Source: Agelas oroides (Eukaryota; Porifera; Demospongiae; Agelasida; Agelasidae). Taken from it: 64,000 nucleotides of DNA. The first letter of the stretch is position 1. Each line of letters begins with the position of its first letter. A program made the translations under genes and the position numbers. Where the stretch lies: positions 21,530,824-21,594,823 of the forward strand of contig OX422184.1 in assembly GCA_949130485.1 (NCBI GenBank). The letters run 5' to 3'. This document shows, in pieces, positions 4,857-56,236 of this stretch. The notes beneath the pieces are model-generated. The model did no database searches. It was not told where the DNA came from and saw only the letters and a program-made list of their open reading frames with translations.

Positions 4857-4955
4857 CTTTGTCTGCTTGTCAACACTGGCACCACTCTGAAGAAGTCGTT
4901 CAACAATGGCCTGGTGGCCATACTGACAAGCAATGAAGAGTGAAGTGGCTCCGCT
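4857..4955 (-). CDS. Ankyrin-repeat exon, type A (copy A1)
   Basis: The last exon of the array in this window. 99 nt, phase 0/0, acceptor TTTGTGATAG, donor GTGAGG. Reads SGATSLFIACQYGHQAIV, then ERLLQSGASVDKQTK. It lies in the left copy of a 5.5 kb tandem duplication. Downstream in the transcript, towards position 1, no further intact ankyrin exon occurs; only a cut-off E-type exon end is found near 554-566. Confidence 0.87.
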
Positions 4956-5639
4956 CTATCACAAAGAGAATAAAGAAATTCATTATTTATTTCACCTATA
5001 AACAAGAATCAAATGTGTGCGCAATACATACACTGTCACAAATAACATAAAAATATCGTATTCCAGATGCACAGAAGCAAACACTCATGCAGCCTGATTA
5101 GGAAACTCCAGACTGTGAAGCTTATGAAGCTATGGCAGTTCAAAGTACGAGTAATGAAGCCATGCTGAGTACTTAACACATTACAAATTGGATTACAAAC
5201 ACTGGAAACCACAAGATGTGTCACTTAAGTTGCGTGATAACGAGATTCATAATTCACTTGCAGCAGCTTTTGTGCAGAACTGTCATACTTCAGGCGACAT
5301 TCCAAATATCTCAGGAACAGTATCCCTGATTGGAACCGGACAAGCAGCAAATGATTCTGCACGCATTGGCCTTTTCGGTGATGCATGATATAAGCCAGAG
5401 GTCAAAAATTGCGCTCGCAGTAATAAATTTAGCTCAAACATATATCGCTGCAAATAGAACATAATCAAGTCAGATATTTGGAATGTAGAATTCTTATACA
5501 AAGTAAGTTCTAAAGCATGGTTTCTGCTTACTGCTGCTTAAACTACAAACTAGATATTCAAACAGAGCAGTCTTAGAGCTTCAAAAATGTCAATATTGCT
5601 AGGTAGGGTGAGCAAAAACTGCACAGATTTATTAGATAT

Positions 5640-5790
5640 TCATGCATCTACGAAGCGCATATGAGCCCCGCCCTTAACGGAAGTTCAGCGATACGGCGCT
5701 TGAAACGCAGCAATGTGATCGAAATACGCGACGGAATAACCTTCGATTTCTACATGGGACTGCCACATATGATAAATATGATGTGATTTG
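5640..5790. mobile_element. Fragment related to the 575-bp MITE interior
   Basis: Contains ATGAGCCCCGCCCTTAACGG and GACGGAATAACCTTCGATTT, both also found inside 7743-8317. The terminal repeats are missing. An equivalent copy lies at about 11700-11850 in A2, so this fragment predates the tandem duplication, while the full-length element at 7743 followed it (or was lost from A1). Confidence 0.6.
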
Positions 5791-7603
5791 TGAGAAACCC
5801 TCTGGAAACCCAGTTCACAACATTTGATTATGTGCTCTAGTTGGGAAGTGGTAAAATTATGAACAATGAAAATGGAGACGGAAATAGAAACAAAAATGCG
5901 TAAGGGTTAGGGTTTGGGCAGGTGAACTGGATCTTCAGTATCGTATTGATCCCAGGGAGCCCTCCAGATGCTCCTTTAGACAGAGTTGACAAAGACAGCA
6001 TGTTTAAATACTGTTCATCCCTTCCTGCAGGCACGATAACTAGCATGGTGCAGTGCTTTAGATTAGCTGGCTAGCTAGTATAAGGTAAGCATTAGTAAAG
6101 CGTCTATACATGCAGCAATATCCAACTACCTGAACTACTGAAAATTTCAACTGAGAAGCTCGGACTCACCCCATTTCTGGCTGTAAATTTGAAATTAAAT
6201 ATTGTGTTCACTGTACTATGTGCGTGTCCATAGAAAGGGTATCAAGACAGGAGAGCAAAGTTCATGTTTGAAAAATAATGGAATTGTGCTATACAAAATG
6301 CACAAGGAAGTGGGGAATTCCCCTTTCCACTAGCAGATTGTGTTGCTCTAGCAATGCCAGGTATTCCAGCGGTTTTGCTTCACACAAACTTGCCTAGTCA
6401 CAGAGAAGACTGGCGCTACTCTTGAGGAATAACTAGCACACATTCACAGTAACACTAATTTTCAAAAGAAGGGGAGCACAGTCATAAATGCTAGCTACTC
6501 CCATCTCCCTTTCCACATGACTTAGTGGCTTGATGCTCAAACAGGAGCCATGCCATTTTGTGGACCAACTTCTGGAGACAACTTCTACACCATGAAACCA
6601 AGGATATACTGGCTAACCTCCATTTTAGTTTATATCATCAGTTTACATCACACCAACCAGCCTAGTTGCAGACAAGAGACACAAGATAGGGCTGTGTTAG
6701 TAGTCAGGGGTAGGTTGGAACTGGCTAAGAGCTTTATATGTGTGGAGACGGAAAACGGGACAGTTAGAGTCTTGGAGTCCAGCAGTCTTTCCTCTAACAA
6801 CTAAATACACTGTTTGTGGTAGCCATGCAGGTGGAGATCCCTCGTAGAGGGAACTATGGGCCTAGGGTGGATTGAAAGTTGCCCAAGTGGATAGCTCACT
6901 AACCCCACCCCAGCCTTTGGCTTAATTATCTCCTAACCAAAGGCTGCCTGCGGTTCAGTTTGGGAATGGAAATGGGAGTGGAAATGGGAAAGGGAATGGG
7001 AGTGAGGTTGTTTAGGGTGAGTCTTAGTGCCTACATGTATGTGCAAGAACAGATAAGAATGGACAGCAAGAAATAGATAAACAGAGGTAAGATACCCGAC
7101 ATTTCTAGAACACTTCCTGCCACTGTCACACACATTTTAGTCAGGTAGATGGATCACAGTTTGTGTACTGACTACTAGCCAAAAGCAAACATTACCAGAC
7201 TCCCATACAACCACTGAGTGTTCACAAAACATGCTATGTACCAATGCCTGCTTGAGTAGGCTTCCAAGGTGCTGGTTGGGGCAAGTGTGAGCGAGCCCCA
7301 CACTAATGAGTGGAACAGCAGATTTTCTCTTTCTCTCTATCTGTCCATATATATACTTAAATTATCAGAGAGTCGGTAGACTATGTAGGAATGGCGCTGA
7401 TGCGCAATATAAGCAATACTTAAGCAAAAGCCATATAACTTCACCATAAATATGCTAAATGCTGATTTAAGCGCCCAAGTGTTGACCTTTGCTTTTATGC
7501 TATCATCCCTACCTTGCTTGCCTACTTTTGGTATGCCATGCACCCTTTTACATTTTTAATGTTTTTTTTTTTTTTTAATTATTTCTTGTATAATGTATAT
7601 TTC

Positions 7604-9216
7604 CAGTAGAAAGTGACTTATCCGAACTTGAGTTATCCGAATCTTACTTACCTGAACCACGAAATTAATGATATTTGGGGCGAGCGTGAGCGAGCCCCAC
7701 ACTAGTGAGTCGAATTGCTGATTTTTCATATATGTGTATATACCGTAGTGTTCCGCAAATACGCCCCCCCTTTTGCAACCTTAGCCTTAGTTCAAAGCGC
7801 AAGGGGGGCTTATACGCGGGATGCGACATTTTCTCTCGCGATTATGCCCTCCCTTCCGGTGCCCCGCCCACAACTTCGTGTCCAGCTAGAAGACAACGCA
7901 TTTGATGACTTCGCAGTTGCTATCTGGATGGATGTTATTTATACATGTGGCAGTCCCATGTAGAAATCGAAGGTTATTCCGTCGTGTATTTCGATCACAT
8001 TGCTGCGCCATATGGCTGAACTTCCGTTAAGAGCGGGGCCCATACGTGTTTCGTAGATGTATGAATATCTAATGATCTATGAAGCGCATATGAGCCCCCC
8101 CGCCCTTAACGGCACAGCGATGTGATCGAAATATGCGACGGAATAACCTTCGATTTGTACACGAGACTGCCACACACAGTATATTTTGGTAACAGCCATA
8201 ATTATATGATTGAGGGGGGGCTTATGCGCAGGATAAAAATACCTCTGCAAGACTTTGCGCTAAAAATGCAGGGGGGGGCTTATGCGCGAGGGGAGGCGTA
8301 TTTGCGGGACACTACGGTATATATATATCTGTTGTACGTCGTTCTGTAAATGTAGGTTCATACTCTTTTAAAACAATCCGCACACCGTGTGCATGCACGT
8401 ATGGACAGAATATTGAAAAGAACACGTGCACACATACACGGTCAAGTTATAAATGCTATATGAACTGCAACGTGGAGACCTACTTCAGAGTTTTAATTCA
8501 CAGTTTTACTTTGGAGTTTTACTTACTTCAGAGTTTTATTTCAGAGTTTGTTGTTACTTGTTTCGAACATGAATACCCAGAGCAGTTCTAGAAGAGCTCT
8601 CAACTCACCGCAGGAGCAAAAAGATCGGTGTGACTAACAGTTGTGTAGAAAGGCTCACGCAGCTTACCGAACGCAGTAGGCGGCAGATATTTTGTTTCAT
8701 AGCTGATGCGTGGCGACTTCCCTCTACTATTTCTCAAAGAACCCTCAAGTCTTGAAGGACTAGGCATGCCAGACTGTGTTCTGACTTAGCCTATAATTGC
8801 AACAATTGGAGTAGCTGCGTGTTGGTAGGACAAATCGCCAAATGGCTCTGTTGTGTGGTAGTACCCCACGAAAAGCTTTCTCTGCAACCATGACAATTTT
8901 TCTAAGCTATTGAGCACTTTTGTAGACAGTAGAGTTGCAAACCTCGTTTTAGCTACATGCCATGCTTGAATTGCCTGTGTGCTGTCTGACCCTTTACTGG
9001 TAAAGCCTTAGCTACATAACAGTCAATGCTGTAGTGCATTGCTTGCTCACGCTCGCCCCACAATGTTCTACATTCCCCTAGTCATAGATATTTTGCTGTG
9101 CATTAAAAGGAAAGTAATCTGCTTGTACACAAATAGTATTGCCTTACTTATCCGAATATTTCAGTTATCTGAACACCCCTTAGTCCCTGCATGTTCAGAT
9201 AAGTGACTTTCTACTG
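7604..9216. mobile_element. Outer inverted-repeat transposon in A2
   Basis: The A2 copy of the element at 2138-3165, with the same CAGTAGAAAGTGACTTATCC end. It contains the GAGCGTGAGC element at 7677-9059, which in turn contains the younger element at 7743-8317, a three-level nest. Confidence 0.5.
7743..8317. mobile_element. 575-bp MITE with TA target duplication
   Basis: Ends CCGTAGTGTTCCGCAAATAC and, in reverse, CCGTAGTGTCCCGCAAATAC, flanked by TA on both sides. The A1 copy shows the empty site at about 2250-2275 (a TA-rich run leading straight into CTGTTGTACGTCG). The interior has a second inverted repeat built on ATAACCTTCGATTT and its complement, so the whole folds back. Open frames inside are short, overlap in several phases and are judged chance. 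Confidence 0.85.
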
Positions 9217-9392
9217 TATTATATAATATGCTTCTCATATGTTGTGCCATATGTCATCACACACTCAAATTTAATGCATGAGCATCAGCATACAGTCGAA
9301 AGCAAACAACACGTGGACATACAAAAGCTTGCATTGAACTGTTTCAATTCTACTTCAGACTTCTTGAGAGTTTACTTGTACTCGTATTGAAC

Positions 9393-9587
9393 ATGGATAC
9401 CATGAGCATATCCACAAGAGCCCCTGAGCTATTGCAATATGAAGAAGACAAGAAATGGCACAGGAATGAACGGGACAGGTCGGGGCAGAGACAACGAAAC
9501 AAAATGTACAAGTTTCATGTACATATGGCCAGCTACATTGGACATAGCGTTCTTCCAAAATGCAGCAGCAGTCGTAGTGATTGTTGA
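9393..9587 (+). CDS. Small open frame of unknown function (A2 copy)
   Basis: Counterpart of 3332-3526 with a Pro to Leu change and otherwise nearly the same protein. The same upstream ATAAAAG-like context is present but altered (ACATACAAAAGC instead of ACATATAAAAGC), so the possible TATA box is damaged here. No known domain recognised. Confidence 0.17.
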   Translation: MDTMSISTRAPELLQYEEDKKWHRNERDRSGQRQRNKMYKFHVHMASYIGHSVLPKCSSSRSDC

Positions 9588-9797
9588 TCTCATATAATAT
9601 CATGAGGAACTGGGTAGGGTGAGGTACTTATACATGAGACTAATTGAATATTTCAGCAAACTCCTCCTCCCCACTCTTGCCTCAAAGTAGTGTGCAAAAA
9701 GGGGGGCGTATTTTCGGGAGCTCATGGTATATTTGTAAACACATTTTCAAAAAGCTTGGGCAAACCTAAATGAATCACACATTAATCAGTTAATTAA

Positions 9798-10267
9798 CCC
9801 TTTAAACCCTATAGTGCACTTTTGGTTACATCACACTACGCTGGTGCTGATTCTGAGTCAGCAGAAAGGGTGGGACAGGGAGAAGTGGATGGGGTCACCT
9901 GCAGGGTACTGTGCACAGGGCAGCTGCTAGGCTTGGCCATAAAAGAGCCATGGTTAGCACCGAGTCGGCCAATTCCCCACCCTGGTTGCATGGACAGGCA
10001 TAGAAATGTTATTCTCACCTTTTGGGTGGTTAAATTCTGGTAGGGAAGGTGGCTTGGGCTCTAAGCGGGTATTTGCGAACCAAGAATGCGACTATTGCAT
10101 GCTCGTTAATGAGTGGGCATGGTTAAGGTCACAAGTCTACTTATTAAGGCTGGAAGTGCACTTGGGTTCAGTTTTGGAGTCAGAGCTCAGACAGATATAG
10201 TGTGTGCTAAAGGTATGCATTTGCTAAAAGTAGTCACAAGTGAAAAACAATTAGGGTTTAAAGGGTT
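9798..10267. mobile_element. TTAA-flanked MITE, family CCCTTTAAAC (A2)
   Basis: A2 copy of the element at 3737-4207, with the better-preserved terminus CCCTTTAAACCCTATAGTGC, complementary to TAGGGTTTAAAGGG at the other end. Confidence 0.65.
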
Positions 10268-10916
10268 TTAATCAATAATTTACTTAAACAAGAGCATTTT
10301 GTGTGTATATAATGTACAGTAGAACCTCTCTAAGGTGGACACCATAGCTACTACTGCTGAATGCTCACTGTATGGAGGTGCCTATTTCAAAAATGCCACT
10401 TTCGCTACCACACACTTTCGCGTTTAGCTGTCTTCCACGAGGCTTTTGTCCAGCTATATGTGCCTTGCTGATCATAAAAGAACTCTCAAAGAGGAAGGCT
10501 GGGCACTTAAATAAGCTTTTATTGTATTTGTGGTAAAGATATATGGCTTTCAGTTTATATTATGCAGCCGTGCCATCCTAGTCTTGTTCCCAGACCCTTG
10601 GAACGGTACACACACGTCTTACTAAGGGTCTGGGAGCGAGACGAGTGTATTGACTCTGATACGTATGTATGCACATTAGTATAGGAATGGTGTTATTCAA
10701 CTGAAAGTACTGTAGTCTTAGAATTGCTTGTACATGTACTTCAGGAAAGAAAGGAGCTAAGAAAACACAAGGAAGTGCAAAAAGAAGCTAGTTGAACATA
10801 TTTAACATCATATGACTAACTAAAAATTTGACATTCACAAGAAGTGATCTCTTTCCTTAAATCTGCCAACAAATGATGATGTGTAACAACCTAGCAACAA
10901 CACTGCTGATCCTCAC

Positions 10917-11015
10917 CTTTCTCTGCTTGTCAACACTGGCACCACTCTGAAGAAGTCGTTCAACAATGGCCTGGTGGCCATTCTGACAAGCAATGAGGAG
11001 TGAAGTGGCTCCGCT
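10917..11015 (-). CDS. Ankyrin-repeat exon, type A (copy A2)
   Basis: 99 nt, phase 0/0, acceptor TTTGTGATAG, donor GTGAGG. Reads SGATSLLIACQNGHQAIV, then ERLLQSGASVDKQRK. Relative to the tandem copy A1 it has three base changes, all residue-changing (Phe7 to Leu, Tyr12 to Asn, Thr32 to Arg). The 116 bases after the donor and about 210 bases before the acceptor are identical in the two copies. Residue 12 corresponds to a variable, partner-contacting position in ankyrin repeats. Confidence 0.87.
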
Positions 11016-12094
11016 CTATCACAAAGAGAATAAAGAAATTCATTATTTATTTCACCTATAAACAAGAATCAAATGTGTGCGCAATACATACACTGTCACA
11101 AATAACATAAAAATATCGTATTCCAGATGCACAGAAGCAAACACTCATGCAGCCTGATTAGGAAACTCCAGACTGTGAAGCTTATGAAGCTATGGCAGTT
11201 CAAAGTACGAGTAATGAAGCCATGCTAAGTACTTAACACATTACAAATTGGATTACAAACACTGGAAACCACAAGATGTGTCACTTAAGTTGCGTGATAA
11301 CGAGATTCATAATTCACTTGCAGCAGCTTTTGTGCAGAACTGTCATACTTCAGGCGACATTCCAAATATCTCAGGAACAGTATCCCTGATTGGAACCGGA
11401 CAAGCAGCAAATGATTCTGCACGCATTGGCCTTTTCGGTGATGCATGATATAAGCCAGAGGTCAAAAATTGCGCTCGCAGTAATAAATTTAGCTCAAACA
11501 TATATCGCTGCAAATAGAACATAATCAAGTCAGATATTTGGAATGTAGAATTCTTATACAAGCTAAGTTCTAAAAAATGGTTTCTGCTTACTGCTGCTTA
11601 AACTAAAAACTAGATATTCAAACAGAGCAGTCTTAGAGCTTCAAAAAATGTCAATATTGCTAGGTAGGGTGAGCAAAAACTGCACAGATTTATTAGATAT
11701 TCATGCATCTACGAAGCGCGTATGAGCCCCGCCCTTAACGGAAGTTCAGCGATACGGCGCTTCGAACGCAGCAATGTGATCGAAATACGCGACGGAATAA
11801 CCTTCGATTTCTACATGGGACTGCCACATATGATAAATATGATGTGATTTGTGAGAAACCCTCTGGAAACCCAGTTCACAACATTTGATTATGTGCTCTA
11901 GTTGGGAAGTGGTAAAATTATGAACAATGAAAATGGAGACGGAAATAGAAACAAAAATGCGTAAGGGTTAGGGTTTGGGCAGGTGAACTGGATCTTCAGT
12001 ATCGTATTGATCCCAGGGAGCCCTCCAGATGCTCCTTTAGACAGAGTTGACAAAGACAGCATGTTTAAATACTGTTCATCCCTTCCTGCAGGCA

Positions 12095-13845
12095 CTCCAA
12101 TTAAGGCCCCATTATTCATTGTCCCTCCCCTGAGTTATTCGACAATCCCATCCCAAACATCTTTAAGCCCCACCCCCAATTTGTGCAGCTATATTAAACA
12201 CACACTGTTAGGTACAATCTTGACAAGCATTGACCTTTACCACTTCCCGTCCTAGTTACCAGGTGGTCTACTATTATAGCAGAAACAATATCTATATATG
12301 TGAAAGATTAGGATCAGGGTTGGAGCTAAATAATAGGGAAGTTGGTTCTGGAGAAGGTTAGAGGTGCATGCAGAAATATGGGTGAGGCCGATGGTAAAAG
12401 TTAAGGGCTAGGGTTAACTAATTCTACTCTACCAGTACTATGCAGCATTCATGGAGTTACGGACAGGACTTGGGCTGTTCTAGGGTAGTGACCATGGGCA
12501 TTTTTCAATCTTTCTGTATCTTAAGTGACTAAGAAATGGGGTTATAAAATTGTCGCAAGGGATTGAGGTGAGGAGGGTTGGTTCGTACCAAACCAATCTC
12601 CTGATTTTTGATCACATGATGACTGACCAGCTGCAGCACAGAAAACTGTACTGACAACTGACAATCATAGCTTTATAGTACTAAACCTGTGAGTAGCTAG
12701 TGAAGCTATAAGTTGGCAGCTGAATGCAGTGCCTTACCTATGTGGTGTTCATAAACCCTGCCCTCCACTATGGGAAGAAACTGTGCCAGCCGTGCAAGTG
12801 GTCAACTTGGGATTTCACTTGTGCACTAGTCTCGTTCCCAGAACAATGATCATGATATTTGGTCTGGGAATGACACCACGTGTGTGCATGCGTTGTGAAT
12901 GGCTTTGATTGACTAGGGTGAATTTGAAGCTATGAAGACGCTGAGTGGTCATAGAGTTCCGCGCTATCAGTTTCGTGCTAAAATGACGGTGAGTACTTAA
13001 ACCGATTGCAAGCCTATCATTGTTGAACATAGTGGTCTTAACAAGAAAGGAACTAAGAAAGAACAAGAAAAATAGGACTTTTGCTACTGCACACTTTTGC
13101 GTTCAGCTGTCTTCCGCGTGGCCTTTGTCCCTTATGAGTCTTGCTGATCACAAAAGGCAAAGAGGAAGTCTGGGTGGTTAAACAAGCTTGTAGCGCATTT
13201 GTGGTGAAGTTATGCGGCTTTTGCTTAAGCATTGCATATATTGCGCATAGGTGCCATCCCTACATAGAGAGTCTACGGACTGTCTGATAAGAACATCATA
13301 AGATTCTTATTACTTTAAAAATTTTATGTAACTATCCCAAATCTCTTGTAAGAAACTGTACTTAAGCACTGGGAATTTCTCATAAAATTTTACTGTGAAT
13401 CTTTTGCATAAGAGTGCCTAAGGCCCTGAAGGTATCAGACTTCGCTCAAAATTGGAACGCTGGATATGCCTAAGGCCCTGAAAGTATCAAACTTGCCTGC
13501 TGCCATGGTGATAATTAGAGCAATTTGTCATGAGACAGATTTCTAATTGACACCAAATAAGTGGTTAATTATAGCCTTACAGACATACATTCAGGCTGCA
13601 CCCTGGATATTGACCATAAATCTCCATGGCTACCGTAAAATAACGAATCCGTTCATATGAGATTGCTCATAATACTAGGGGAATGTAGCTAGAACATTGC
13701 AGGGCAAGCGTGAGGAAGCAATGCAGTTAGTTGCCAAGTTAATGATTCATCAGTGTATTACCAGATCACAAGGTTTGTCAGTCTCTACAGTCTGCCACAA
13801 GCTTCTAACACGTGAGGGTTCAGTAATCCAAATGCAGTATGAACG
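12095..13845. repeat. Block B1, no gene
   Basis: Matches 51001-52905 (B2) almost throughout, and the last 215 bases of A2 match the start of B2 as well. It includes a region (about 13080-13270) that is a diverged copy of 4340-4530 in block A. No exon or RNA gene found. A short telomere-like GGGTTAGGG occurs at the A2/B junction but is not an array. Confidence 0.8.
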
Positions 13846-14584
13846 GTGTATTTATACACCTGCATTACATTTGGGCCCCTACCGTGTCAAGAAGCAAAGC
13901 CAAGCAGCTCCTGAGGGTAAATCCTTTCCTATTTAGTGGTAACTGTTGAGGCCACACCTTTTCACTTACATCACTATCCAGGAAAAGCAGAAAGGGGCAG
14001 TAGTCTCGCAAGCCAGATCTAACCAACCCCAGTGCAGATCGCTTTCAGTATAACGCACGGTGCTGGGGTTGGTTGGGTCTGGCTTGCGAGAGTAGAAGGG
14101 GTAGTACTACTTTGTGAGTGTGATTTGCCCAAGGGCTGCCAAACACTAAGCTTTTTCTCAAATGAGGGAAGCAAACGACCTCCAGTTTTCACATATGACA
14201 GAAGTACTACCTTCAAATAACTTAGAAATTGGCTGAATCTGTTGCGGCTATGGGTATCAAGTGGGAAAATTGCCACTATTTCAAAGTGCTGGTAAGTTAC
14301 GAGTATAGTCACGCATAAATGGCTTCAAACAAGAGGAAATAGCTTACTTAGCAGTGGTCAGTAACTTAGATAAACTAGTCCACCCCAGTTACACACTATT
14401 TTTATGCAAATCAGGCCACTGGCTAAGCCTAGCACTTGCTTAGCATGCTTGACACTTTGGTGCCTTTCAATTGAAGTCGGATAAAAAGTTGCCAACAGTA
14501 CCTTTCGAGTGTTTCTGCATTTAAGTTACACCAACTGGCTCCATGCAGCATAGCACTGGAGGATCATGTTCAACATCATCTCAC

Positions 14585-14683
14585 CTCTTCCTGTTGGTTT
14601 ACATCAGCTCCATTTTGCAATAGGTGGGCAACAATCTGTTGATGTCCTTTTGCACTGGCAATGTACAGTGCACTCTGGCCAGT
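14585..14683 (-). CDS. Ankyrin-repeat exon, type C (copy C1)
   Basis: 99 nt, phase 0/0, acceptor TATTCACAG, donor GTGAGATG. Opens TGQSALYIASAKGHQQIV and ends LLQNGADVNQQEE; every core ankyrin position is present. It lies in the first C+D unit, about 7 kb downstream in the transcript from the D1 exon. A fossil donor flank without an exon lies between them near 15.6 kb, another near 19.1 kb. Confidence 0.88.
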
Positions 14684-14756
14684 CTGTGAATACAAGGGAT
14701 GCAGAACAAATTGCTGGTAATTCTCATTGTTTTACAAACCCTCACACTGTCTGCTT

Positions 14757-14846
14757 AGCCTCATTCCCAGGCACGTCCACACCTCCAGTTTTTGGTCGAT
14801 GAAAATGATAAAGAGTGGAGGTTGGAAAAGGCCTGGGAATGTGGCT
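14757..14846. repeat. Foldback of the GTTCCCAG family beside C1 exon
   Basis: Arms AGCCTCATTCCCAGGC and GCCTGGGAATGTGGCT, with a second complementary pair inside (CCACACCTCCA with TGGAGGTTGG). It lies about 75 bases upstream of the C exon acceptor, in transcript direction. Copies at 26951-27044 and 37657-37750. Confidence 0.75.
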
Positions 14847-16513
14847 GTAGCTAGTTCAGACATTTCACCATTCAATAAGCATAACAATATACAGAGTGGA
14901 TTATGTAGCTCTTGTAAATTGATGACGTTCCTCACTATTTACTGTTACAGGAAAATTGTTATACTACATAAAATTCAATGTACTTGCGTGGTGCCATGGT
15001 AATAATTAGAGCAATTTGTCAAACATAACAATGAGACAGATATTGTTAAACTCTAATTGATACCATCTGGGAGGAGAGTCTCAGCTGATGAATAATCATG
15101 TTCTCATAGTATATACAGACAGGGTTCATTGTGAGGTCAAGGTTCAATACAGTATAAATATTAGTGTGTATACCCACGACAGTATTGTCTCAGATACAGT
15201 CCTTGTGAAGTGGAGATACAGTGCATCTTATTTAGCCACAGCTTAGTATGGGACATGTGGTGTGAACAACACCCTTTGGTGGATTTTTATGCAGGATTGG
15301 TGCCTGGTGTTGGACTCCTGATTTGATAGCTGGCAATAGGTAGAACAATATTTCATGCAGCTTAAACTATCTTCTATGGATGTTGAGTGCAACCTCTGGG
15401 AAGCAATCAGACTAATAGATGTATGTTTAAGGCAACAAAATTATCAAGACAAGGTTTTCAAGTCTTGCAGGTGAAGCCGTGTTCAATTGTAAACAAATTC
15501 AAGTGCTTTGGGTGGCACATGCAGTTAGTGGTGTACCATGTCACATGCAAATGGTGATACATGCCAAACAAATGAATCCCTAGCAACAACATTGGTGACC
15601 CTAACCTCTGTATACACATACATTGGTTGTTGCATCAGTGAAACAAGGCTTCCATCTTATCACTGTGCCTCAGATTGACTATACCAACTACGATGGTACA
15701 ATGCATACGTGTATCACAGATATGACATGATATTTCAGGGTGGGTCTCAATTAGAAATCTCCTGGAAAATTAGTACACAACATTTGGGAAGCAGTAAAGG
15801 TACGGCCAGAAAGGGAAATCGAAATGAAAACAGAAATGGAACGCTTTGTATACAGATGGCATAAGTACGGATTACAGAATGGAGTGGTCAAAACCACTTA
15901 CTCTGTGCATTCTGTTCCCAGGACACCACCCAGCTCTTGTCACTTTCAATATGGAAAAGCAGGGGGTCCTGAGAATTTTATCTTGTAAGCGACATCAAGG
16001 ATTAATAAACACAGGTGGGACCATTTTCACTACATACACACTATTGCTGGTGACCTTTTCTGAGTAGTCCTTTTAACTTCAGTTACACACTTCTTACAAA
16101 GTTTAGTATCAACGTTTAGCACCACAGATGTACGGTAGTATATAAATAACATGCAGAGGCTGTGTAGCTCCACAACAATTAAACACACGTGCAAACAGTT
16201 AACTTTCACTTCTTCTTTGGGCTACTTCAGGTGGTATGACACAAAAGTTTCTACTACCATATTTCTACCCCTGATGTCACTCTGACGATAAAAGTTCCCA
16301 ACTGCAAGAGATGGAATGCTGGGTGGGGGCATGAGAATGAGGCTGTATCATGTGCTTTAAGAGTGTCATCTATGACTATACCAACCTTGTCCTGGGAGAT
16401 GACATCATGAATAGCATACTTCATATTCCAGATGTACACAAGCAAACACTCATGCATAAACACTTGATCCTGATTAGGAAACTCAAGAGTGTGAAGATTA
16501 TTTCTAGTCTTAA

Positions 16514-17493
16514 GGTGGCACAGTACCCTGGATTTTTAAGGTCAACAAACCTGGAATCCAAGCTGATAGACTTCTTTGTCTTGTTAAAATTTTAGTGCAC
16601 AGTCCGTTTTGAGAGTCTCAAACCGTTCACGGTCCGTAAAATTGGGGATTTTCCCCATTTCCTGTCGGCATTGCCATCCAATAATCAGTTTATAATTAAG
16701 TTAGTTAAGATGTGGCCCTTCATGTGGTGTCGGAACTTTGAAAATAAGCTTAGATCGACTTAAAAAAAAAAAAAAAAAAAAAAAAAGGAGTTTAGTAGCT
16801 GTGAGTAGTGCGTAATGTCTGCTTGTAAAAGCAAGCTTGCGTCTAGAAGAAGCAGAAAGGCCACAGTGGCCAAGACTGTGTTTGTTGAGTAGGCCCAGGT
16901 CTCGCGGCCGTATGCCTAGCCTAGTTGGTGACCGTGGCCAGGTGCTTCAAGTGCTGGGATGGGCTTTAACTAGAATACGCAATTTATCGTTGGTGCTACA
17001 GTCTGACAGCCAAGGGAGCTGAACGGTGGCTGTGTGTGGAACAGAGCCGTGAGTTGTTTAGCGACATAAGGGAGAGAGGTGGGGCTAGTAATGCTTGCTT
17101 CCACTCGTGAATGAGCCCCTCCTGTAGACAAGCTGTGAATTTTTTAAAATGTGCATTCATTTTGGTGCAGTCAAAGTCGTCCATTCCAAGAGTAGTGACA
17201 AACATGAGTCTAGCCTGACTTTGAGAGTAGCTTTGAGCAAAAGCTGGCATAGATTGTTTTGAGATACATTGGTGGTTGGGACACTACCTACAGTGAGCGT
17301 GTAGATGCGTCCATCGAGTGGCAATTTGGGGTTCATGAATATATTAATGAGCTACTAAAACTCTTTTTAAAATTAGGCAAAGCAAGATTGCCCTAAAGCA
17401 AACCCTAATCCTGGAACTAGGAGTAACCCTGGTCCTGACTGTAACCCAGGTTTATGTTTTCGTTAACCTCCGCCGAGTGACGACCGTGCCACC
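16514..17493. mobile_element. 980-bp TTAA insertion private to unit 1
   Basis: Flanked by TTAA (16510-16513 and 17494-17497). Ends GGTGGCACAGT and, in reverse, GGTGGCACGGT. Units 2 and 3 have the uninterrupted site (CTAGTCTTAAGGTGGCAGTTC near 28708 and 39412). The element contains a 25-base poly-A run at 16762-16786 and no convincing gene. TTAA specificity points to a piggyBac-type element. Confidence 0.83.
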
Positions 17494-17497
17494 TTAA

Positions 17498-18109
17498 GGT
17501 GGCAGTTCAAAGTAAGAGTGATGAAGCCATGCTGAGTACTTAACACACTACAAATTGGATTACAAACACTGGAAACCACAAGATTGTGTCACTAAAGTGC
17601 GTGATAACGAGTTCATAATTCATTTGCAGCAGCTTTTGTGCAGAATTTCAAATATCTCGGAACTGTATCCCTGATTGGAACCGGATAAGCAGTGAACGAT
17701 TCTGCACGCGTCGGCCTTTTCGGTGATGTATGATATAAGGCTGAGGTCAAAAATTGTGCTCGCTGTAATAATTTTAGATATGATTGATGCGCTGCAAGAA
17801 CAGGTTTTTAGCGCTATTGCCCAAAGTCTTTATAGCAAGCGCTGAAGCATACATCGCTGCAAATGGAACATAAAAAAAAAAAAAATTCGTAATTTTCTGA
17901 CCAACACCAAGTCAGATATTTGGAATGTAGAATTCTTATACAAGCTAAGTTCTAAAAAATGGTTTCTGCTTACTGCTGCTTAAACTACAAACTAGAGATA
18001 TTCAAACAGAGCAGTCTTAGAGCTTACAAAAAGGCCAATATTGCTAGGTAGGGTGTGGAAAAAATGCACATCTTATGACTAGTTTATCCCAGAAGGTTGA
18101 ACCGCCACC
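17498..18109. mobile_element. 612-bp TTAA element, GGTGGCAGTTCAA ends (unit 1)
   Basis: TTAAGGTGGCAGTTCAA at 17494-17510 and TTGAACCGCCACCTTAA at 18097-18113 are complementary at 16 of 17 positions. It abuts the 980-bp insertion and shares the TTAA between them. Its interior is related to 5140-5620 in block A, where the terminal repeats are no longer recognisable. Interior frames carry indels that break frame between copies, so no gene is called. Confidence 0.65.
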
Positions 18110-19268
18110 TTAATATTATATAGTGGGTTATTTTCATAAATTCAGCCAGTCCCTCAATCTGTACCCTGGTTACTGACCATAAGCTATGATGCAGTAACTA
18201 GTAAGTAATAGCTGCTTAGCCTTATTCCAAGGCCCATCGACACCTCTCGTTTTTGACTGTTGAAAATGATTAAAAAGTGGAGCTGGAAAGTGTGGAAATG
18301 TGGCAGTAGCTAGTTCTTCTGAGAGAAGACTTTCAGTGGATTATGTAGTTCTTGCAGACTGAATATCTCCATCAATATCTACTGTTACTAGTGAATGGTT
18401 ATTGCCGAGCACATTAGGGCGAGGCTACCGATCTTGCATTGTCTGTTCTCAGTTGGCAGGGTGTGGCTTACATAGTTATGTGCTAACATCTGTCACACAA
18501 AAATCTGTCACATTTAGAAACGCAAACAACATTATGCTTAGGAATGAAAACATTAATCATAGTTAGGAATGCCCCAGCACAGCAGCATTGCTAGCAGTCT
18601 CATTGTTTCATACCGGCTGTGGTTTCATACCAGTACTGGGGTCAGCAGAGCGCGGCCAGCGTGTGCCAGCGCCAGCAAAGCGAAGGCAGAGAGCTAGACA
18701 GTGTAGAGCGATAAACAGAGCTCGAGGAAGTGGATTCCGAGAGGCCATCAGAGTGCAGTCAATGCCTTACAACACTAAGGGAGTGACGGCAAAGAGGCTA
18801 GTAGAGTGAAGCAAAAAGACAGTGATAGTGAAGTTACTATGCCATGCCATTTTGGTGCTAGGCAACGGCTGCAAAAATGTCGCTAATCTCCGCAAACCCA
18901 TCAAAAGCATCACTTTGATATGCTTCATTCATGTCTCAAGATCACTGACCATGCCTTTATATGTATGTACAAGCAAAGAAGATTTCAAGACAAAAGTTTC
19001 TAATTCTTAGAGGTGAAGCCCTGCTATTTGTAAACACATTCAAGTGTTGGGAGGTACTTAGTGGTGTACTGTGTCACATACCAATGTTGATGCATAGCAA
19101 ACAAAATAGTGCTGATTAGCAACAACATTCCTGACCATCACCTGTGAATACACATACATTGGTCATGAAAAAACAGTTCTGTCATATCCACAGAACAGGG
19201 ATAGGCAATGTAATAGAAAAAATTCTGCAATCCTTCCTAAGGTAATGTGGATACTCGAGCAGCCATGT

Positions 19269-19343
19269 GTGGATGGTAGACACAAACCCAGCTGTGGATG
19301 GTAGACACAAACCCAGCTGTGGATGGTAGACACAAACCCAGCT
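19269..19343. repeat. 25-bp minisatellite, three units
   Basis: Three exact tandem copies of a 25-bp unit beginning GTGGATGGTAGACACAAACC. Units 2 and 3 of the large repeat have one copy (about 30489 and 40013). Confidence 0.93.
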
Positions 19344-21753: not shown

Positions 21754-21852
21754 CTTTGTCTCCTGCTCCAAACTAGCTCCTGCTTGTAGTAGCCGCTCAA
21801 CAACCTGGGCATGACCCTCTTGGCAGGCCACATGCAGAGAAGTGAACCCAGT
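21754..21852 (-). CDS. Ankyrin-repeat exon, type D (copy D1)
   Basis: 99 nt, phase 0/0, acceptor TTTCACAG, donor GTAAG. Begins TGFTSLHVACQEGHAQVV and continues ERLLQAGASLEQETK, a near-ideal ankyrin repeat with the TSLH, GH and LL signatures. It differs from the D2 exon at twelve bases, of which eight fall in six amino-acid-changing codons, whereas the adjacent intron on the acceptor side differs by about 3 percent by eye. It is the most upstream exon, in transcript order, of the first C+D unit. Confidence 0.88.
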
Positions 21853-40500: not shown

Positions 40501-42372
40501 GCAGTTATGATTAAATAGATGGAGCATTTGTGATGGGCAGTGATGGTTAAGTGGGTGGATATATCAGTTCCCAGTACCATTTAGATACGTATGCTCAAAA
40601 AACACTGGCCTTCGGTGTAGTACCCTCTCTGATCATCGCATGACTATGGGTCTATTATGTCACTCTGCATTATGTCAATTTGACATACTACTAGGCATAT
40701 GCAGGTGCACAGTGCTTCATGCAGATCATGTGGGAGTGGTTTTATATAGTCAGTTTTTCGTGAGAACATCTGACAGTGGGAAGTGTGTCTAGTGTGTGTA
40801 GAGTCTTCTTACAATGATGCTGGGTTGCCTCCAGGTCATGGACGTGGTTACGAGGTGTATCACATACCAATGAAAAGTGCATCACTTACCAACGAGAAGT
40901 GTATCACTCAGCTGCTAGTACATGTTTCCTGTCATCTTGTGTAGTTTGTACCACACTAAGTCTGTAAATCACCCTACTGTCCCACGTACCCTCGTCTTTG
41001 TGGCAAAGAGTGCATATGGCAGTGATGTTATGTAGCTACTACCGTACTCACTCGACATTACGCTCCCCCTTTTTGTTGTTAGATTTAGCAACAAGTAGGG
41101 GGGCCTATAATGGTAATTAGTTTCGTTCATACGCCCCCTTTCCTCGCTGTGGAGCGCGCGAGGGGAAACAGCAATGCCAGAATAGTCCGTCACCGTCTCG
41201 TGCGGTTTGCGATGAAGCTCGTAGTGGCTCAGTTCCGCAGGGCAAAGGATCATGAATCAATGAAGGTGCAGAGTGTGTGCGGTCAGAAAACACAATGCAG
41301 TTTTCGCACAACCACCAGCTAGCTACGAGCATGCTGCCAAGCAGCCAATCGCTTTGTCGGTGTATCGCTGGCCACTAGGTAGCTAGACTGGTACAGTGAG
41401 TTCTAACCTCCCTCTCATTCGTCGGAGTCACAGCGTTCTTCTGTGCTTATTGTGTATTATTAAACTTCCATGTACGGTCAAGGGGGGGGGGCTTAAATTG
41501 GAGATAAACAACCAAGTAGCTTTACTCATCACACTTTACAGACCTACTTAGCATACCGTACAATTGAAACCCAGTAGGTGACTTCAAAGGCGTAGCTTTT
41601 AGTGAAATCCATAGCAACAGCTAGCCCATGGTGTGAGGATGTACTATATTCGCCAGACCCTCCTTTCATCTCTAGAGAGGGGTCTGGGTTTGAGACTAGT
41701 ATGACCATAGTCAAACCCAGACAGAAACATATCCACATGATGTAACCACATATTAAGATCCAGTCACAAGTAAGCACTAGACTAATATGATGTGTTCACA
41801 AAACAAAAGAAATACCTACATGTGCGTTGAATGACTAAAATTATGTCATAACATTCCCAATCCCAATCTAAGACTTATAAGACTTAGTATCATTCTGTGT
41901 ACAGTGGTTTGGTTAAATTCTAAGATTGTGCTTACAATGCTACTTCAAGGATACTGACAGGAGCAAAAAATGTCAAAGAGTAATAGCATTTGTTTAAATG
42001 CCTGTGTTTGGTGTGGGTGTGCTCAAGTATGTCTCATGTATAACTTTAGTGAAGTAGTTCAGCTTACTGAACAGTCACTGTTTGTTTTGAATGTGCACAT
42101 ACATGAAACCACTAGCCTTGTTCACAGAACACTGTGTGCCCAGATTTTGTTGCTTACAGTACAAACTTGTGCAGATCACCACAGACAATGCAAGTCGCCT
42201 TCACTTAGTATTAATAGCCATCACTGATATTCAGTGGTACATGACTAGCAATGTAGCTGTTTTGCACTGTCATTGTGGATATTGTCAAGCCAACATTGAA
42301 CAAGGGGGTTATGGTATGTGTGCACCGTTCAGCATCACAAACACAATCTATAACTGTAACACTCCATCTTAC

Positions 42373-42471
42373 CTTTGTCTCCTGCTCCACACTAGCTCCT
42401 GCTTGTAGTAGCAGCTCAACAACCTGGGCATGACCTTCCTGGCAGGCTACATACAGAGCAGTGGCCCCATC
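42373..42471 (-). CDS. Ankyrin-repeat exon, type D (copy D3)
   Basis: 99 nt, 33 codons, phase 0/0, acceptor TTTCACAG and donor GTAAG. Starts DGATALYVACQEGHAQVV and ends with GAS-V-EQETK; the TALY, GH, LLL and GAS positions fit the ankyrin consensus well. It is the least degenerate of the three D-type exons. Compared with the D2 exon, all ten base differences fall in the first 14 codons and the last 19 codons are identical. The exon lies in the third C+D unit, about 4.9 kb upstream in the transcript from the C-type exon at 37.5 kb. Confidence 0.87.
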
Positions 42472-43565
42472 CTGTGAAAGAGTCAACAATAAAGATCATT
42501 TATAGTCAACATGTTTAATGACACAGAATATAGCAAATGATTAACACTTTACCACTGATCTGCTGCTAGGGGTACACAGGATGTAGCACAATGTATAGCT
42601 CAAGGGTTAATTATACATCACATGCCAGGCCAGGCTGATTAGTACTCTTGCAACAGCAACCATGTGAGCCAATTAGACGTCAGTAACCTTATTAAGCTGC
42701 AATCTTGTAACCTGATACTTTAAATACAGCTGTAACTTGACTGGGGTCAGCAACAAAGAATGATTAGCTCAACATTTCATAAATTGTTGACAGTATCATT
42801 TGTCTATGCATGGCTGTTCCATGCATAAAAAGAACAGAACCACGCCTGTATTGTATATGGCCTGGAAGGGAGACTGATGCATGGAGCATGCATGGACTTG
42901 TAGACTCACGCATGGAACATGCATAAAATGGTAGATTCATGCATGCACATATCATGCATGTATTACACATGATACATGCACGAATCTACCATTCCATGCA
43001 CATATGCAGTCTAACATTAATGCCCACTTCATACCACACCAGATATAAACATACCATGCACCAATCCCTGCTTGAGGGGGTTTCCAAAGTGCTGATTATA
43101 CACTAGAACGTGGCATGCTGGGTCTTGTGGTTTATAGCTTATTAACCTCTGACCTGCTGTGCAAACTAGTATGAAAGCCTGTCACATGAGCCTTAGTAAC
43201 CATGAGTGCTCTTAGCAGCTCTTTATCATGTATTCCAGCTGTTCACTTAAGTCATAGTTATATCCCTCCTGGGGGATAGCCTCGTCCCCAGGCCCCATCT
43301 GAAAAAATGGGAAAGGGGCCTGGTAGTGTTTCCGTGTATTTTCTGTCAACCTTTGCCACTCAAAGTTTTGAGGAACCAATCAGATTGTGGAATGAAAGCA
43401 CGTGGAATGTGATCTCGTCACATGCGCACGAGGCCAAATGTGCTGACTATGCAATATGGTGGAGTAGCTCATGATGGCGTAGTCTGTGTTTCCTACGTGT
43501 TTTTCTGGAGATCGGTGGACAATCAAACTCGGAGAGTGCTGTATACCCATGCGGGATATCGAGAC

Positions 43566-44560
43566 AACAGCCAACTACTAGTGTTTAACTTGTGAACATA
43601 TAGGCAACTGATCCTTTAGGGCCGAGAGCAGATACATCTGACATAGCACTGTTCTGTGGCTTCCCACTTCGCAACATTGTGTGACAAAGAACTGATGTAA
43701 TTACTGGTAATTTTGCTGGTGTTCCCACTCACTGAAACGGTAGCAATAAGGGCAGGCTAAGGTACTGAGCATCAGAGCAGTTTTGTGGAGACAGGTTGCC
43801 AGCAAGAATATTGAGTGGTACAAGTAGAAAGACTTGTCTTCCCTCCATTTATGCTTATTTGGAGCAGTTCTCCCATTGTGAGTTACTAGAGGCCCATCTT
43901 CTCCAGTAACAGGGCAAACATCATCATTCACAAATCGCTTTACAAAGATAGGAACAATTCGTCGTCTCTCAAATGCACACTGTATAGTGAAGCCTATGAA
44001 TATTGAAACCATCCTCTCACATCGCACATAAACACGTGGCTAGGTACGTATCTGGATAGGCAGGCCCACAACTCAAAACGCAGGATTTTAAGTGTTTATA
44101 GAGTGTATCTAGCAAACCAAGCACCAGTAGACAAGGCAGATTTTCAATGTTTTGTACAGTTTAAAGGTATTTAGCACGAATAGAACAGCTGGGATCTGGA
44201 GAACTGATGTTTTCTGTGCCAACAGATAGACAGACAGATAGACTTAATGACAGAAGTCGTTTTATTTAGCCATTCTGAGTTGTGGATATGGGCATTTTGC
44301 CATCATTCTGTCCCTCCAGGGATATAAAATGGGCTTATAAAATTGTCACAGAGGATTGAGGTAATGAGGGTTGGGTCCTGTTTCAAATTCTGACATCACA
44401 GCAGTGAACACAATGAACAGTGGAGGTTTGTTCAGGAAAATTGAAGAACTCAACATCTCACATCATATCACATCTGTGTGAATCACACAGTGGTGCACAA
44501 CAGTAGCTGGCTAGCTAGCAAGTTAATCCACAGCACTACGTGTTACCAAGGGCGCATCAA
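43566..44560. repeat. E segment, diverged copy E3 without exon
   Basis: Aligns with E1 from about 36048 onwards (GGGCCGAGAGCAGATACATCTG and following) with many substitutions and indels. The part that would hold the E-type exon is missing because the junction with unit 3 falls inside the segment. Confidence 0.8.
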
Positions 44561-52905: not shown

Positions 52906-53960
52906 TAGCTAGCTTGTCATGTATGGAGAAGTAGCTACCACACAATAAAGCCATTTGTCTTGCCTAAGCCGCTACCGTCTCTGGGCTTTAGTGCTGACCT
53001 CTGTTTTCTTGTGAACACACAGGCTGGTTTGTCATGCATAGTCATTTCACAAATAGCAAAGGAAAATCACCACGCATGCTAAATACACAGCTAGACAACC
53101 TTACACTAAACTGTTGAAGTAAACAGTTATCTGCCACCTTCTGTGTTATGTAAGTAGCCTTTTTGTTTGCACAGCTGCCTGCCTTCGTACAGTAGATGTT
53201 TATGCTCCAGCTTTCCCTCCTAGACGTTTCTTCTAACTTGTGTTTTCACTCATGCAGACACGCTAGAACTGAGTGGAAATTTTACTTTTGCATTAAACCC
53301 GCAATTCAACTCACTAGTGTGGGGCCGGCTCATGCTCGCCTCAACAAGCTGCAGCAGACCTCTTCTAACTAGGCGAATGTAGAATATTGTGAGGTGAGCG
53401 TGAGCAAGCAATACACTATGGCATTGAACTGTCGTACAACTAAGGCTTTACTAGTGAAGTGTCAGAAAACAGCACCCAGGCCGTGGCATGTGGTAAACAA
53501 GGTTTGTCAGTGCTTACTCACTGAGAGAAGATTGTCGTAGCTGCAGAGAATAGCTTGTCATGGAGTGGTATGAACCAGCAGTCGTCACACATCAGCCAAG
53601 AAGGAGGATCATGGATCCTTCGTTCAGCCTGTACATGTGTACACAATTGTTAGCCCTTGTATACATACTGTAGTGCTCAGGCCCCAGCTGCCCATCCTGG
53701 ATGTCGCTGTGAACATAACTGCTATCCTGCTGGCCCTTATGCACTAGATGCGCACGCTCCAGCTGGTCTTCCAGGCTGTCTTTCGTCATTCAAGCCCTCA
53801 CCTTGAAGTTAGCTAGAAGTTGTACTTTTACTTATGGTCCACATGCGACTCGCAGATATCATGTAATAAACATACAGAACGATGTACACCCAATATAAAT
53901 ATACACAATTCAACTCACTAGTGTGGGGCTCACTCACACTCTCCTCAAGAACTTATTATT
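52906..53960 (-). mobile_element. Two reverse copies of the GAGCGTGAGC element
   Basis: 52906-53345 ends with CACTAGTGTGGGGCCGGCTC, the complement of the element's left end; its right end is missing. 53393-53944 is a complete copy in reverse, from GAGGTGAGCGTGAGCAAGC to CACTAGTGTGGGGCTCACTC. In the second, a 65-codon minus-strand frame (53592-53789, starting MTKDSLEDQLERAHLVHKG) occupies the place of the short Ser/Arg frame in block A, so members may carry different captured or diverged frames. Confidence 0.6.
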
Positions 53961-54596
53961 TATGCCTTTATGCTCAAATATTGTAGTGAATATGTTGCTA
54001 ATAATGTATAGCTATGTTTCATATATTTATCACAATGTTTCATTACGGTAGGACTCAAAACAACAAAGAAATAATATTTTAGTACTGGTGTGTGATATTA
54101 ATTAGCACATGTGTATCATAGTGGTAAGGACAGTCTTCAAGGAATTCTCTTGTCCACCAGTAAAGAAATTTAGAAAACACACTGCTGACTCTCACCTCTG
54201 TATACACATACATTGGTCATGAAACACGGCTTCCATCTTTTCACTGCAATTGAGCTACAGTACAATTTCTAATAATTCGTATACACCCTATTAATTCGTA
54301 CACCCCTTTTATGGTAATTTACGTACTCTAATTTATTCATACACGTAAAAATGAAATTATTATTGTATTGTTTGTACAGTGGAAGAGCACACATTTGAGC
54401 ACAAGCACTCTGAGTTGATGCAAATATGATGAGAGTGTTTCTAATGTTCACAAGTAATGCTTTTGGCTCTGATCATAGCCAGGTGTTTCCTCAACGTGCA
54501 CCGACAACTGTGCTACAATTGCATGTAACACTCCCTACCATGGCCTATGCAGTGACAGTTACAGCTTTTGGGTGGTACGTACATCCCATAGTCATT
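53961..54596. other. Single-copy AT-rich stretch
   Basis: No gene supported. It includes a donor-like fossil near 54188-54199 (GTGAGAGTCAGCAGTGT on the minus strand) matching the intron after A-type exons. The short open frames at 54269-54611 have no recognisable content. Confidence 0.5.
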
Positions 54597-56236
54597 GGCA
54601 ATGATTGCTAATCTGGCAGACAGTGGTAAAGACTCAAATATCCTTCATCTTTATACAGTCAGACACAAAATTCATTATGTTCTTAGTCTGATGAGGTCAT
54701 CCTGTACATGCCTATATATAGACACATACACAAAGGCTCACATCAGGCCTTTCATTGACACAGTGTGCTGACTGTAAATACAGCCCTCACCTTGTTCTGT
54801 AGGTCGGGGTCTGCTCCAGAGTGTAGAAGATCTGTCACAATGTCGGTATGACCCTCAAAGCTAGCAGTCCACAGTGCCGTTCTGCCATCCTAAAGTGAAT
54901 GTATACATAAGTAATCAGTTGTGAATGGGAAAAGTGTACAGAGACTTCTGTTACTTACAAGTGTCTGACTGTACCAGTTTCTTGTGCAAGGGGCCCGGGT
55001 ACAGGCTATACAATCCCAGTTACCACACAACTCAGTGACCATGATTTATGAAAACAAACAGTGAATATAAAACCAAAAGAAACATTGGCATTCAGTTGAC
55101 TGAAACTCCAATACTTCCTCATAGTACGTCTGTTAGTATTTTGGCCTACATACAACACAGGAAGGGACAACAATCTTCCTTGAAAGATTTTGAGTCAATA
55201 ATTTGAACAGTCAGCTACTAACTTAAACTTGTGAACGTACCGGTAACTGATTCTTTAGGGCCGAGAGCAGATACATCTGTGCAATTGACATAGAACTTTT
55301 CTGTGGCTTCCCACTTGGCAACATTGTTTGACAAAGAACTGATGTTAATTTGCTAGAGTTCCCACTCACTGAAACTGTAGTAATAAGGGCAGGCTAAGGC
55401 ACTGAGCAACAGAGCAAGCAGCTGTTTTGTGGAGACAGGTTGCCAGCAAAAATATCGAATGGTATGAGTAGAAAGGCTTGTCTTGCCTTCATTTTATGCT
55501 TACTTGGAGTAGTGCTCTCAATGTGAGTTAATGCAGGTCCATTTTCTCCAGTAACAGGGCAACCATCATCATTCAAGAATAGAACAAATTGCTTTACAAA
55601 GATAGCAACAACCCATCATCTCACAAATGCACACTACATTGAAACATAGTGAAGCCTACGAACATTGAAACCATCCTCTCCCATCGCACATTAACATGTG
55701 GCTAGGTACGTATCTGGATGTGGTTGATAGGCGTGCCAACTCAAAACGCAGGATTTTAAGTGTTTGTAGAGTGTATCTAGCACCTGTAGACAAGGCAGTC
55801 TTTCAATGTTTTGCACAGTTTGAAGGTATTTAGCCTGGATCTGGATAACTGGTATTTTTCGTGCCGACAGATAGACAGACAGATAGATAGACAAACTTAA
55901 TGACAGAAATCGTTTTATTTAGCTGTTCTGAGAAGTGAGTATGGACATTTTGCCATCATTCTGTGTCTTCACGGACTATGAAATGGGGTTATAAAATTGT
56001 TGGAAGAAATTGCGGTGATGATGGTTGGTTCCTTGACAAAGGTTTCAAATTCTGACATCACTTCAGCAGTGAACACAATGAACAGTGGAGGAGATCAGTT
56101 CAAGAAAATTGAAGAACTAAACATTTCGCATCACATCCGTGAATCCACAGTGATGTACAACAGTAGCTAGCTAGCTAGCAAGTTAATCCACAGCACTACT
56201 TGTTACCAAGGGTTCATCAAGCTGCCAAAGGCGGCT
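54597..56236. repeat. E segment, copy E2
   Basis: Near-identical copy of E1, 19 kb away and in the same orientation. It continues at its right end into sequence homologous to the G2 tail (CTCCTTTGAAAAGGAAGCTA), while E1 is joined to unit 3 at that point; this suggests E2 holds the original right-hand context. Confidence 0.92.
54791..54889 (-). CDS. Ankyrin-repeat exon, type E (copy E2)
   Basis: First of the ten exons in transcript order. It is 99 nt, 33 codons, preceded by an acceptor (TTCACTTTAG) and followed by donor GTGAGG. It opens DGRTALWTASFEGHTDIV, with the ankyrin signature G2, T4, A5-L6, A9, G13-H14, then LL at 21-22 and GAD at 25-27. Trp7 replaces the usual His of the TPLH motif. 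Both borders are phase 0, so the exon can be gained or lost without a frameshift. It is identical base for base to the exon at 35627-35725, within a segment that is duplicated almost without change. Confidence 0.85.

What the first reader, a model, noticed from the sequence alone, without database searches (positions are those of the whole stretch)
4857..54889. One exon, one ankyrin repeat: ten interchangeable phase-0 modules
Directly visible: ten minus-strand exons, every one 99 nt, one 33-residue ankyrin repeat, phase 0 on both sides, with canonical AG and GT borders. Any subset, in any order on the pre-mRNA, joins in frame. Ankyrin arrays gain and lose binding specificity by changing repeat number and identity (family knowledge). 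Inference: alternative or cassette splicing could generate many solenoids from this locus, similar in principle to Dscam-type diversity but built from ankyrin modules.
Basis: partly seen in the sequence, partly recalled or inferred. Interest (0 to 1): 0.85.

Follow-up and report, generated by a model that had tools for sequence, protein, structure and literature searches.

The report
Ankyrin gene, one repeat per exon
The window holds part of what looks like a eukaryotic gene in which ten equal-sized exons each encode one ankyrin repeat; this layout is already known from ankyrin genes, and here the array was lengthened by copying stretches of DNA, with no evidence yet of a splicing-based diversity system.

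Summary
Ten minus-strand exons, each 99 nt, open, phase 0 on both sides and AG/GT bordered, each encode one 33-residue ankyrin repeat; 10 of 10 pass the Pfam Ank cut-off. No other Pfam domain was found on the minus strand. They form four families, ordered D-A-T-D-A-T-A-T-S-S, because genomic blocks carrying one or two exons were duplicated (about 92-99% identical). The layout is known: in mouse Ank3, 14 of 20 repeat exons are 99 bp, one repeat each, in the same register (PMC4449188); two of them are cassette exons, included about four times more often than skipped. Dscam-like diversity here has no positive evidence: no transcripts were available, all ten donors are good, and 1.8-12.3 kb introns impose no exclusive choice. 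Unexpectedly, T exons, and less clearly A exons, are among the most diverged parts of otherwise 94-99% identical duplicates; across the whole block, S and D do not show this. Best reading: a conventionally spliced ankyrin-repeat gene growing by genomic duplication, with exon patches perhaps moved by gene conversion.

The parts
54791..54889 (-). Ank exon D1, DGRTALWTASFEGHTDIVTDLLHSGADPDLQNK
42373..42471 (-). Ank exon A1, DGATALYVACQEGHAQVVELLLQAGASVEQETK
37484..37582 (-). Ank exon T1, TGQSALYIASGNGHQQIVTHLLQNGADVNQQEE
35627..35725 (-). Ank exon D2, same 99 nt as D1
32927..33025 (-). Ank exon A2, DGFGALHVACQEGRAQVVELLLQAGASVEQETK
26783..26881 (-). Ank exon T2, TGQSALYIASAKGHQEIVAYLLKNGADVNQQKE
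21754..21852 (-). Ank exon A3, TGFTSLHVACQEGHAQVVERLLQAGASLEQETK
14585..14683 (-). Ank exon T3, TGQSALYIASAKGHQQIVAHLLQNGADVNQQEE
10917..11015 (-). Ank exon S1, SGATSLLIACQNGHQAIVERLLQSGASVDKQRK
4857..4955 (-). Ank exon S2, SGATSLFIACQYGHQAIVERLLQSGASVDKQTK
37066..43567 (.). A-T block copy 1 (A1, T1), 95.6-98.1% identical to copy 2 over three pieces
26035..35430 (.). A-T block copy 2 (A2, T2), 92.9-98.1% identical to copy 3 over the main pieces
13836..24539 (.). A-T block copy 3 (A3, T3)
6034..12095 (.). S block copy 1 (S1), abutting copy 2; 97.8% identical over 3.8 kb and 91.8% over 1.75 kb, about 0.6 kb between the two pieces unmatched
566..6034 (.). S block copy 2 (S2)
54593..56235 (.). D block copy 1 (D1), 1643 bp, 99.4% identical to copy 2
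35429..37071 (.). D block copy 2 (D2), lying between T1 and A2

Best explanation
This is an internal stretch of one large eukaryotic ankyrin-repeat gene, read on the minus strand, with one 99-nt phase 0-0 exon per repeat. Most likely the exons are conventionally spliced in genomic order, giving ten consecutive repeats of a longer solenoid, with perhaps a few exons skipped in a minority of transcripts as in mouse Ank3 (inferred). The array was lengthened by repeated duplication of genomic blocks of 1.6 to about 11 kb that each carry one or two whole exons (shown). Because the modules are symmetric, each duplication can add whole repeats without a frame shift. Short patches, including the T1 exon and the 5' part of an A exon, were perhaps later replaced by gene conversion from related exons, or escaped conversion that homogenised the introns (inferred, weak).
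For: Ten intact exons with intact splice borders; Pfam Ank in 10 of 10; no other domain on the whole minus strand, in a scan that recovered all ten. Self-BLAST shows three A-T block copies, two S and two D block copies at about 92-99% identity. At the D2 block ends the neighbouring matches overlap by only 2 and 6 bases and I saw no transposon ends by eye. T1-T3 differ at 5 of 21.3 synonymous and 3 of 77.7 nonsynonymous sites, as expected of a translated exon. Donors match 7-8 of 9 consensus positions; 0.6-4.2% of all minus-strand GT sites do as well. Same exon size, register and kind of borders in mouse Ank3 Table 2 (PMC4449188, passages read).
Against: No transcript was available, so expression and inclusion are not shown. 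First and last exons, and any domain naming the gene, lie outside the window or were not recognised. The ten may belong to more than one transcript; the 9 kb upstream of D1 and the 12.3 kb after it hold nothing recognised. T2-T3 and S1-S2 differ by 7 nonsynonymous and 0 synonymous changes, which does not show constraint (P of 0 synonymous by chance 0.17). The A pairs have pN/pS of about 0.5-0.9. Acceptor pyrimidine tracts of D1 and D2 are ordinary (10 of 16; 24% of AG sites as good). In mouse Ank3 heart mRNA two 99-bp Ank exons are skipped in a sizeable minority of transcripts, so full inclusion is not a given.
Confidence: 0.76

Rival explanations
1. Combinatorial cassette splicing: the ten modules are alternatively included, producing many solenoids from one locus, as reported for one-LRR-per-exon ROCO genes of brown algae.
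For: All exons are symmetric, so any genomic-order subset stays in frame. Brown-algal ROCO genes with one LRR per 72-bp exon have multiple splice variants (PMC11378527, sections read). In mouse heart Ank3, exons 16 and 18, both 99-bp Ank exons, are cassettes giving four variants (passages).
Against: No transcript evidence here. Splice donors are good on all ten exons; acceptors are ordinary (D) to good. D1 and D2 encode the same peptide, so choosing between them yields nothing new. In Ank3 only two of the 14 such exons are named as cassettes in the passages I saw, and inclusion dominates about four-fold.
Confidence: 0.12
2. Decaying or silent locus: duplicated ankyrin exons left by segmental duplication, not part of a functional transcript.
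For: Within T and A the exons are no more conserved than the introns. No start, end or partner domain was recognised.
Against: 0 of 10 exons has a stop, frameshift or lost AG/GT, although the rest of the A copies differs by 3-6% and the four families differ from each other at 39-50 of 99 nt. T1-T3 pN/pS is about 0.17.
Confidence: 0.1
3. Diversifying selection on the binding face of the repeats drives the excess exon divergence (compatible with the best explanation; its confidence is not exclusive of it).
For: Exon divergence exceeds flanks in T1-T2 (12/99 against 15/598, Fisher 9.9e-5), T1-T3 (p 0.017), A1-A2 (p 0.0066) and S1-S2 (p 0.0099), 4 of 7 pairs tested (pairs not independent, no correction). 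All 10 A1-A2 differences lie in nt 7-41, the hairpin and first helix (P 0.0001, the only one of 7 pairs clustered).
Against: Synonymous sites are raised as well in T1 (pS 0.234), which selection on protein would not do. Variable residues are not enriched at positions randomised in DARPins (list recalled, no call): 5 of 18, p 0.20. T2-T3, A1-A3 and A2-A3 are not significant; D1-D2 has no exon difference; against its whole block the S1-S2 exon is not unusual (26% of windows as diverged).
Confidence: 0.12

Closest known systems
Mouse Ank3 (ankyrin-G) membrane-binding domain
   Same: 14 of 20 repeat-encoding exons are 99 bp with one repeat each; many begin with the same codon pattern (ag/AATGG, ag/AGCGG, ag/GACGG) and several end in CAAAG/gt, among introns from 89 nt to 25.7 kb (Table 2 of PMC4449188). 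Exons 16 and 18, both 99-bp repeat exons, are cassettes.
   Different: Ank3 also has three 198-bp, one 186-bp, one 102-bp and one 96-bp repeat exons. Recent multi-kilobase block duplications and near-identical exons were found here; I did not examine Ank3 for them. No spectrin-binding or death domain was found in this window.
Brown-algal LRR-ROCO genes
   Same: One repeat per fixed-size exon with a constant intron phase, shuffled exons, reported diversifying selection and splice variants (PMC11378527, abstract and two sections read).
   Different: LRR not ankyrin; 72-bp phase-2 exons; splice variants reported from transcript annotation there, none available here.
[quoted passage not shown]
   Same: Arrays of exactly equal exons with one intron phase, attributed to exon shuffling by ectopic recombination and unequal crossing over (PMC6564038, passages read).
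   Different: LRR, 90 bp, phase 2, tens of thousands of exons genome-wide.
Arthropod Dscam exon arrays
   Same: Tandem duplicated exons (described in passing in PMC11378527).
   Different: Dscam relies on mutually exclusive choice among clustered alternatives of one position (recalled). Here exons of different families alternate and each is a whole extra repeat.

Membership tests
Ankyrin repeat (PF00023) | 33-residue repeat scoring above the Pfam gathering cut-off | tested here: met
   10 of 10 exons, 30.1-37.4 bits against 21.1
Ankyrin-type one-repeat-per-exon genes | 99-nt exon, phase 0-0, boundary just before x-G of the repeat | tested here: met
   10 of 10, compared with mouse Ank3 Table 2
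Canonical ankyrin (Ank1/2/3) orthologue | 24 repeats, then ZU5-ZU5-UPA cassette and death domain (as described in PMC5135030, passages) | tested here: inconclusive
   No such domain on the minus strand of this window, but the gene may run beyond it. Exon A1 matches 368 distinct solved sequences at E 0.001, best ankyrin-1/ankyrin-2 constructs, but single repeats score at most about 18 bits in the alignment shown, which says nothing about orthology
Dscam-type alternative splicing | Transcripts with alternative choices among the duplicated exons | not testable with these tools
   No cDNA and no genome held for the window
Dscam-type mutually exclusive splicing | Steric or frame constraint forcing one choice | tested here: not met
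   Introns 1,758-12,319 nt and all exons symmetric; other mechanisms such as RNA pairing were not tested
Exon-shuffled repeat receptor with diversifying selection | Excess amino-acid change at binding-face positions | tested here: inconclusive
   5 of 18 variable residues at recalled face positions, p 0.20; synonymous sites also raised in T1; few changes, little power

The most novel reading that the evidence does not exclude
A fast-changing ankyrin recognition gene: block duplication adds whole-repeat exons, short exon-sized conversion tracts bring in new repeat variants while introns stay homogenised, and optional inclusion of symmetric exons multiplies the outcomes, an ankyrin counterpart of the one-LRR-per-exon receptors of brown algae.
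Probability: 0.08. Interest if true: 0.7.

Novelty: new member of a known kind. Interest (0 to 1): 0.25.

Why it matters
As it stands it is a clean illustration of how symmetric one-repeat exons let a repeat protein grow by genomic duplication without breaking the frame, with copies recent enough to read the block boundaries. If the exon-focused divergence held across the whole gene family and transcripts showed variable inclusion, it would be an ankyrin-based diversity system comparable to those proposed for LRR genes in algae.

Tried and rejected
Own-genome search: no genome is held. Partner domains: whole minus strand in three frames, only the ten Ank exons plus one sub-threshold holin match (E 0.057); short exons of other domains could be missed by HMMER's filters in such long translations. 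Plus strand: 39,840 of 64,000 bases in three frames, two sub-threshold matches (E 0.023 and 0.21), no transposon domain; plus-strand 9,961-24,120 and 34,081-44,080 were not scanned. RNA families and tRNAs: none. An eleventh degenerate repeat at about 25.5 kb: rejected. Relatives by an exact 29-nt exon pattern in genome contigs and viral contigs: none, so the organism stays unidentified; an exact pattern is a narrow test, and no metagenome scan was allowed. High-copy repeats for identification: no 18-mer with all four bases occurs 8 or more times counting both strands. A transposon carrying the D exon: neighbouring matches overlap by 2 and 6 bases at the D2 ends and I saw no target duplication or ends by eye.

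Papers: ten searches counted. In the listings shown I saw no paper on combinatorial splicing of ankyrin-repeat exons; lists were capped (one search showed 12 of 20, 10 of 18, 15 of 5,874), searches returned none, and most subscription papers are not held, so this is weak evidence. A paper on exon choice in Drosophila TrpA1 (PMC11471635) appeared in the listing and was not read.

I therefore raised the splicing rival from 0.10 to 0.12 and lowered the best explanation from 0.78 to 0.76.

Full report
Observation. Ten minus-strand exons of exactly 99 nt, open, AG/GT bordered and phase 0 on both sides are present at the stated places. All ten are Pfam ankyrin repeats above the curated cut-off. A profile built from the ten finds them at E 7.5e-20 or better in the six-frame pieces of the window and nothing else below E 0.19. 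Nine positions (G2, L6, A9, G13, V18, L21, L22, G25, A26) are invariant in 10 of 10; H14 in 9 of 10.

Surroundings. In pre-mRNA order the exons are D1 A1 T1 D2 A2 T2 A3 T3 S1 S2, with introns of 12,319, 4,790, 1,758, 2,601, 6,045, 4,930, 7,070, 3,569 and 5,961 nt. Within families the exons differ at 0-12 of 99 nt; between families at 39-50. A Pfam scan of the whole minus strand recovered all ten and no other domain at a meaningful score. No RNA family or tRNA was found. No genome is held for the window, and an exact exon pattern finds nothing in the genome or viral collections, so the organism is unknown; coding split by introns points to a eukaryote (inference).

Origin of the array. Self-BLAST shows three copies of an A-T block (37066-43567, 26035-35430, 13836-24539), two abutting copies of an S block (566-6034, 6034-12095; 97.8% over 3.8 kb and 91.8% over 1.75 kb) and two copies of a 1.6-kb D block (99.4%). 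The A-T copies are about 92-98% identical over their main aligned pieces, and copy 1 lacks about 1.2 kb present in the others. An older layer, 80-90% identical, links 57.3-61.2 kb to 45.6-49.4 kb, and a truncated D-like stretch without the exon lies at 43566-44564 (79.7%). At the D2 block ends the neighbouring matches overlap by 2 and 6 bases, and I saw no transposon signature by eye. Repeat number here has therefore changed by DNA duplication: this part is shown.

Exons against introns. In aligned blocks the T1 exon differs from T2 at 12 of 99 and from T3 at 8 of 99, while the rest of those blocks differs at 1.3% and 1.6%; no 99-nt window clear of the exon is as diverged. For A1-A3, A2-A3, A1-A2 and T2-T3, 1.0%, 4.6%, 8.1% and 8.0% of other windows are as diverged; for S1-S2 25.8%; D1-D2 has no exon difference. 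Other diverged patches exist outside exons, for example up to 19 of 99 at 42662 in A1-A2. Against 300 nt on each side, Fisher p is 9.9e-5 (T1-T2), 0.017 (T1-T3), 0.0066 (A1-A2) and 0.0099 (S1-S2), and 0.34-0.45 for T2-T3, A1-A3 and A2-A3. These pairs share copies and are uncorrected, and the alignment behind searches is partly unreliable downstream of the A exons (29 of 100 differing next to a 73-base gap), which affects the A p-values. In T1 the synonymous sites are raised too (pS 0.234), and the A1-A2 differences sit within 35 nt (P 0.0001, the only clustered pair of 7). I read this as short conversion tracts, or intron homogenisation that spared the exons, rather than simple selection; variable residues are not enriched on the binding face (position list recalled; 5 of 18, p 0.20). 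The signal is uneven and no donor is seen, so it stays a lead.

Splicing. Donors match the consensus at 7 or 8 of 9 positions on all ten exons; pyrimidine tracts are 10 of 16 for D and 12-13 of 16 for the rest. Nothing found forces exclusive choice; RNA pairing of the Dscam type was not tested. Cis-splicing can only give subsets in genomic order. No transcript was available, so alternative splicing is neither shown nor excluded.

Known comparisons. In mouse Ank3 (PMC4449188, passages and Table 2 seen) 14 of 20 repeat exons are 99 bp, one repeat each, with the same register and borders such as ag/AGCGG and CAAAG/gt, and introns up to 25.7 kb. [quoted passage not shown] Exons in tandem-repeat genes frequently span whole repeat units, and some human repeats probably change by an exon-shuffling-like process (PMC3995336, passages seen). 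One-repeat-per-exon LRR arrays with shuffling are described in brown algae, with splice variants (PMC11378527, abstract and two sections read), and in Tetrahymena (PMC6564038, passages seen). The 2012 Ectocarpus paper and the 2006 paper on introns in repeat-protein genes are known to me only through citations in those texts; neither is held. A1 alone matches many solved ankyrin structures (368 distinct sequences at E 0.001, 60 shown), which confirms the fold family and nothing more.

Verdict. A real and tidy feature, but a known architecture of ankyrin genes, enlarged by block duplication. New member of a known kind; the diversity-by-splicing reading is a possibility without direct evidence here.

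Noticed in passing
37484-37582, 26783-26881, 14585-14683 and the A exons: Exons of the T and, less clearly, A families are among the most diverged 99-nt windows of their duplicated blocks, with synonymous sites raised in T1.
   Followed up: partly
45128-45449: A stretch that matches its own reverse complement at 83% over 342 aligned columns, possibly a palindromic mobile element.
   Followed up: no
23873-24244: Three tandem copies of a 124-bp unit at 99% in A-T block copy 3.
   Followed up: no
61682-61787: 3.5 copies of a 31-bp unit.
   Followed up: no
43566-44564: Older D-like block, 79.7% identical to 55206-56224, cut off before the exon.
   Followed up: partly
57271-61247 and 45579-49394: Older duplication at 80-90% identity without any recognised exon.
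   Followed up: no
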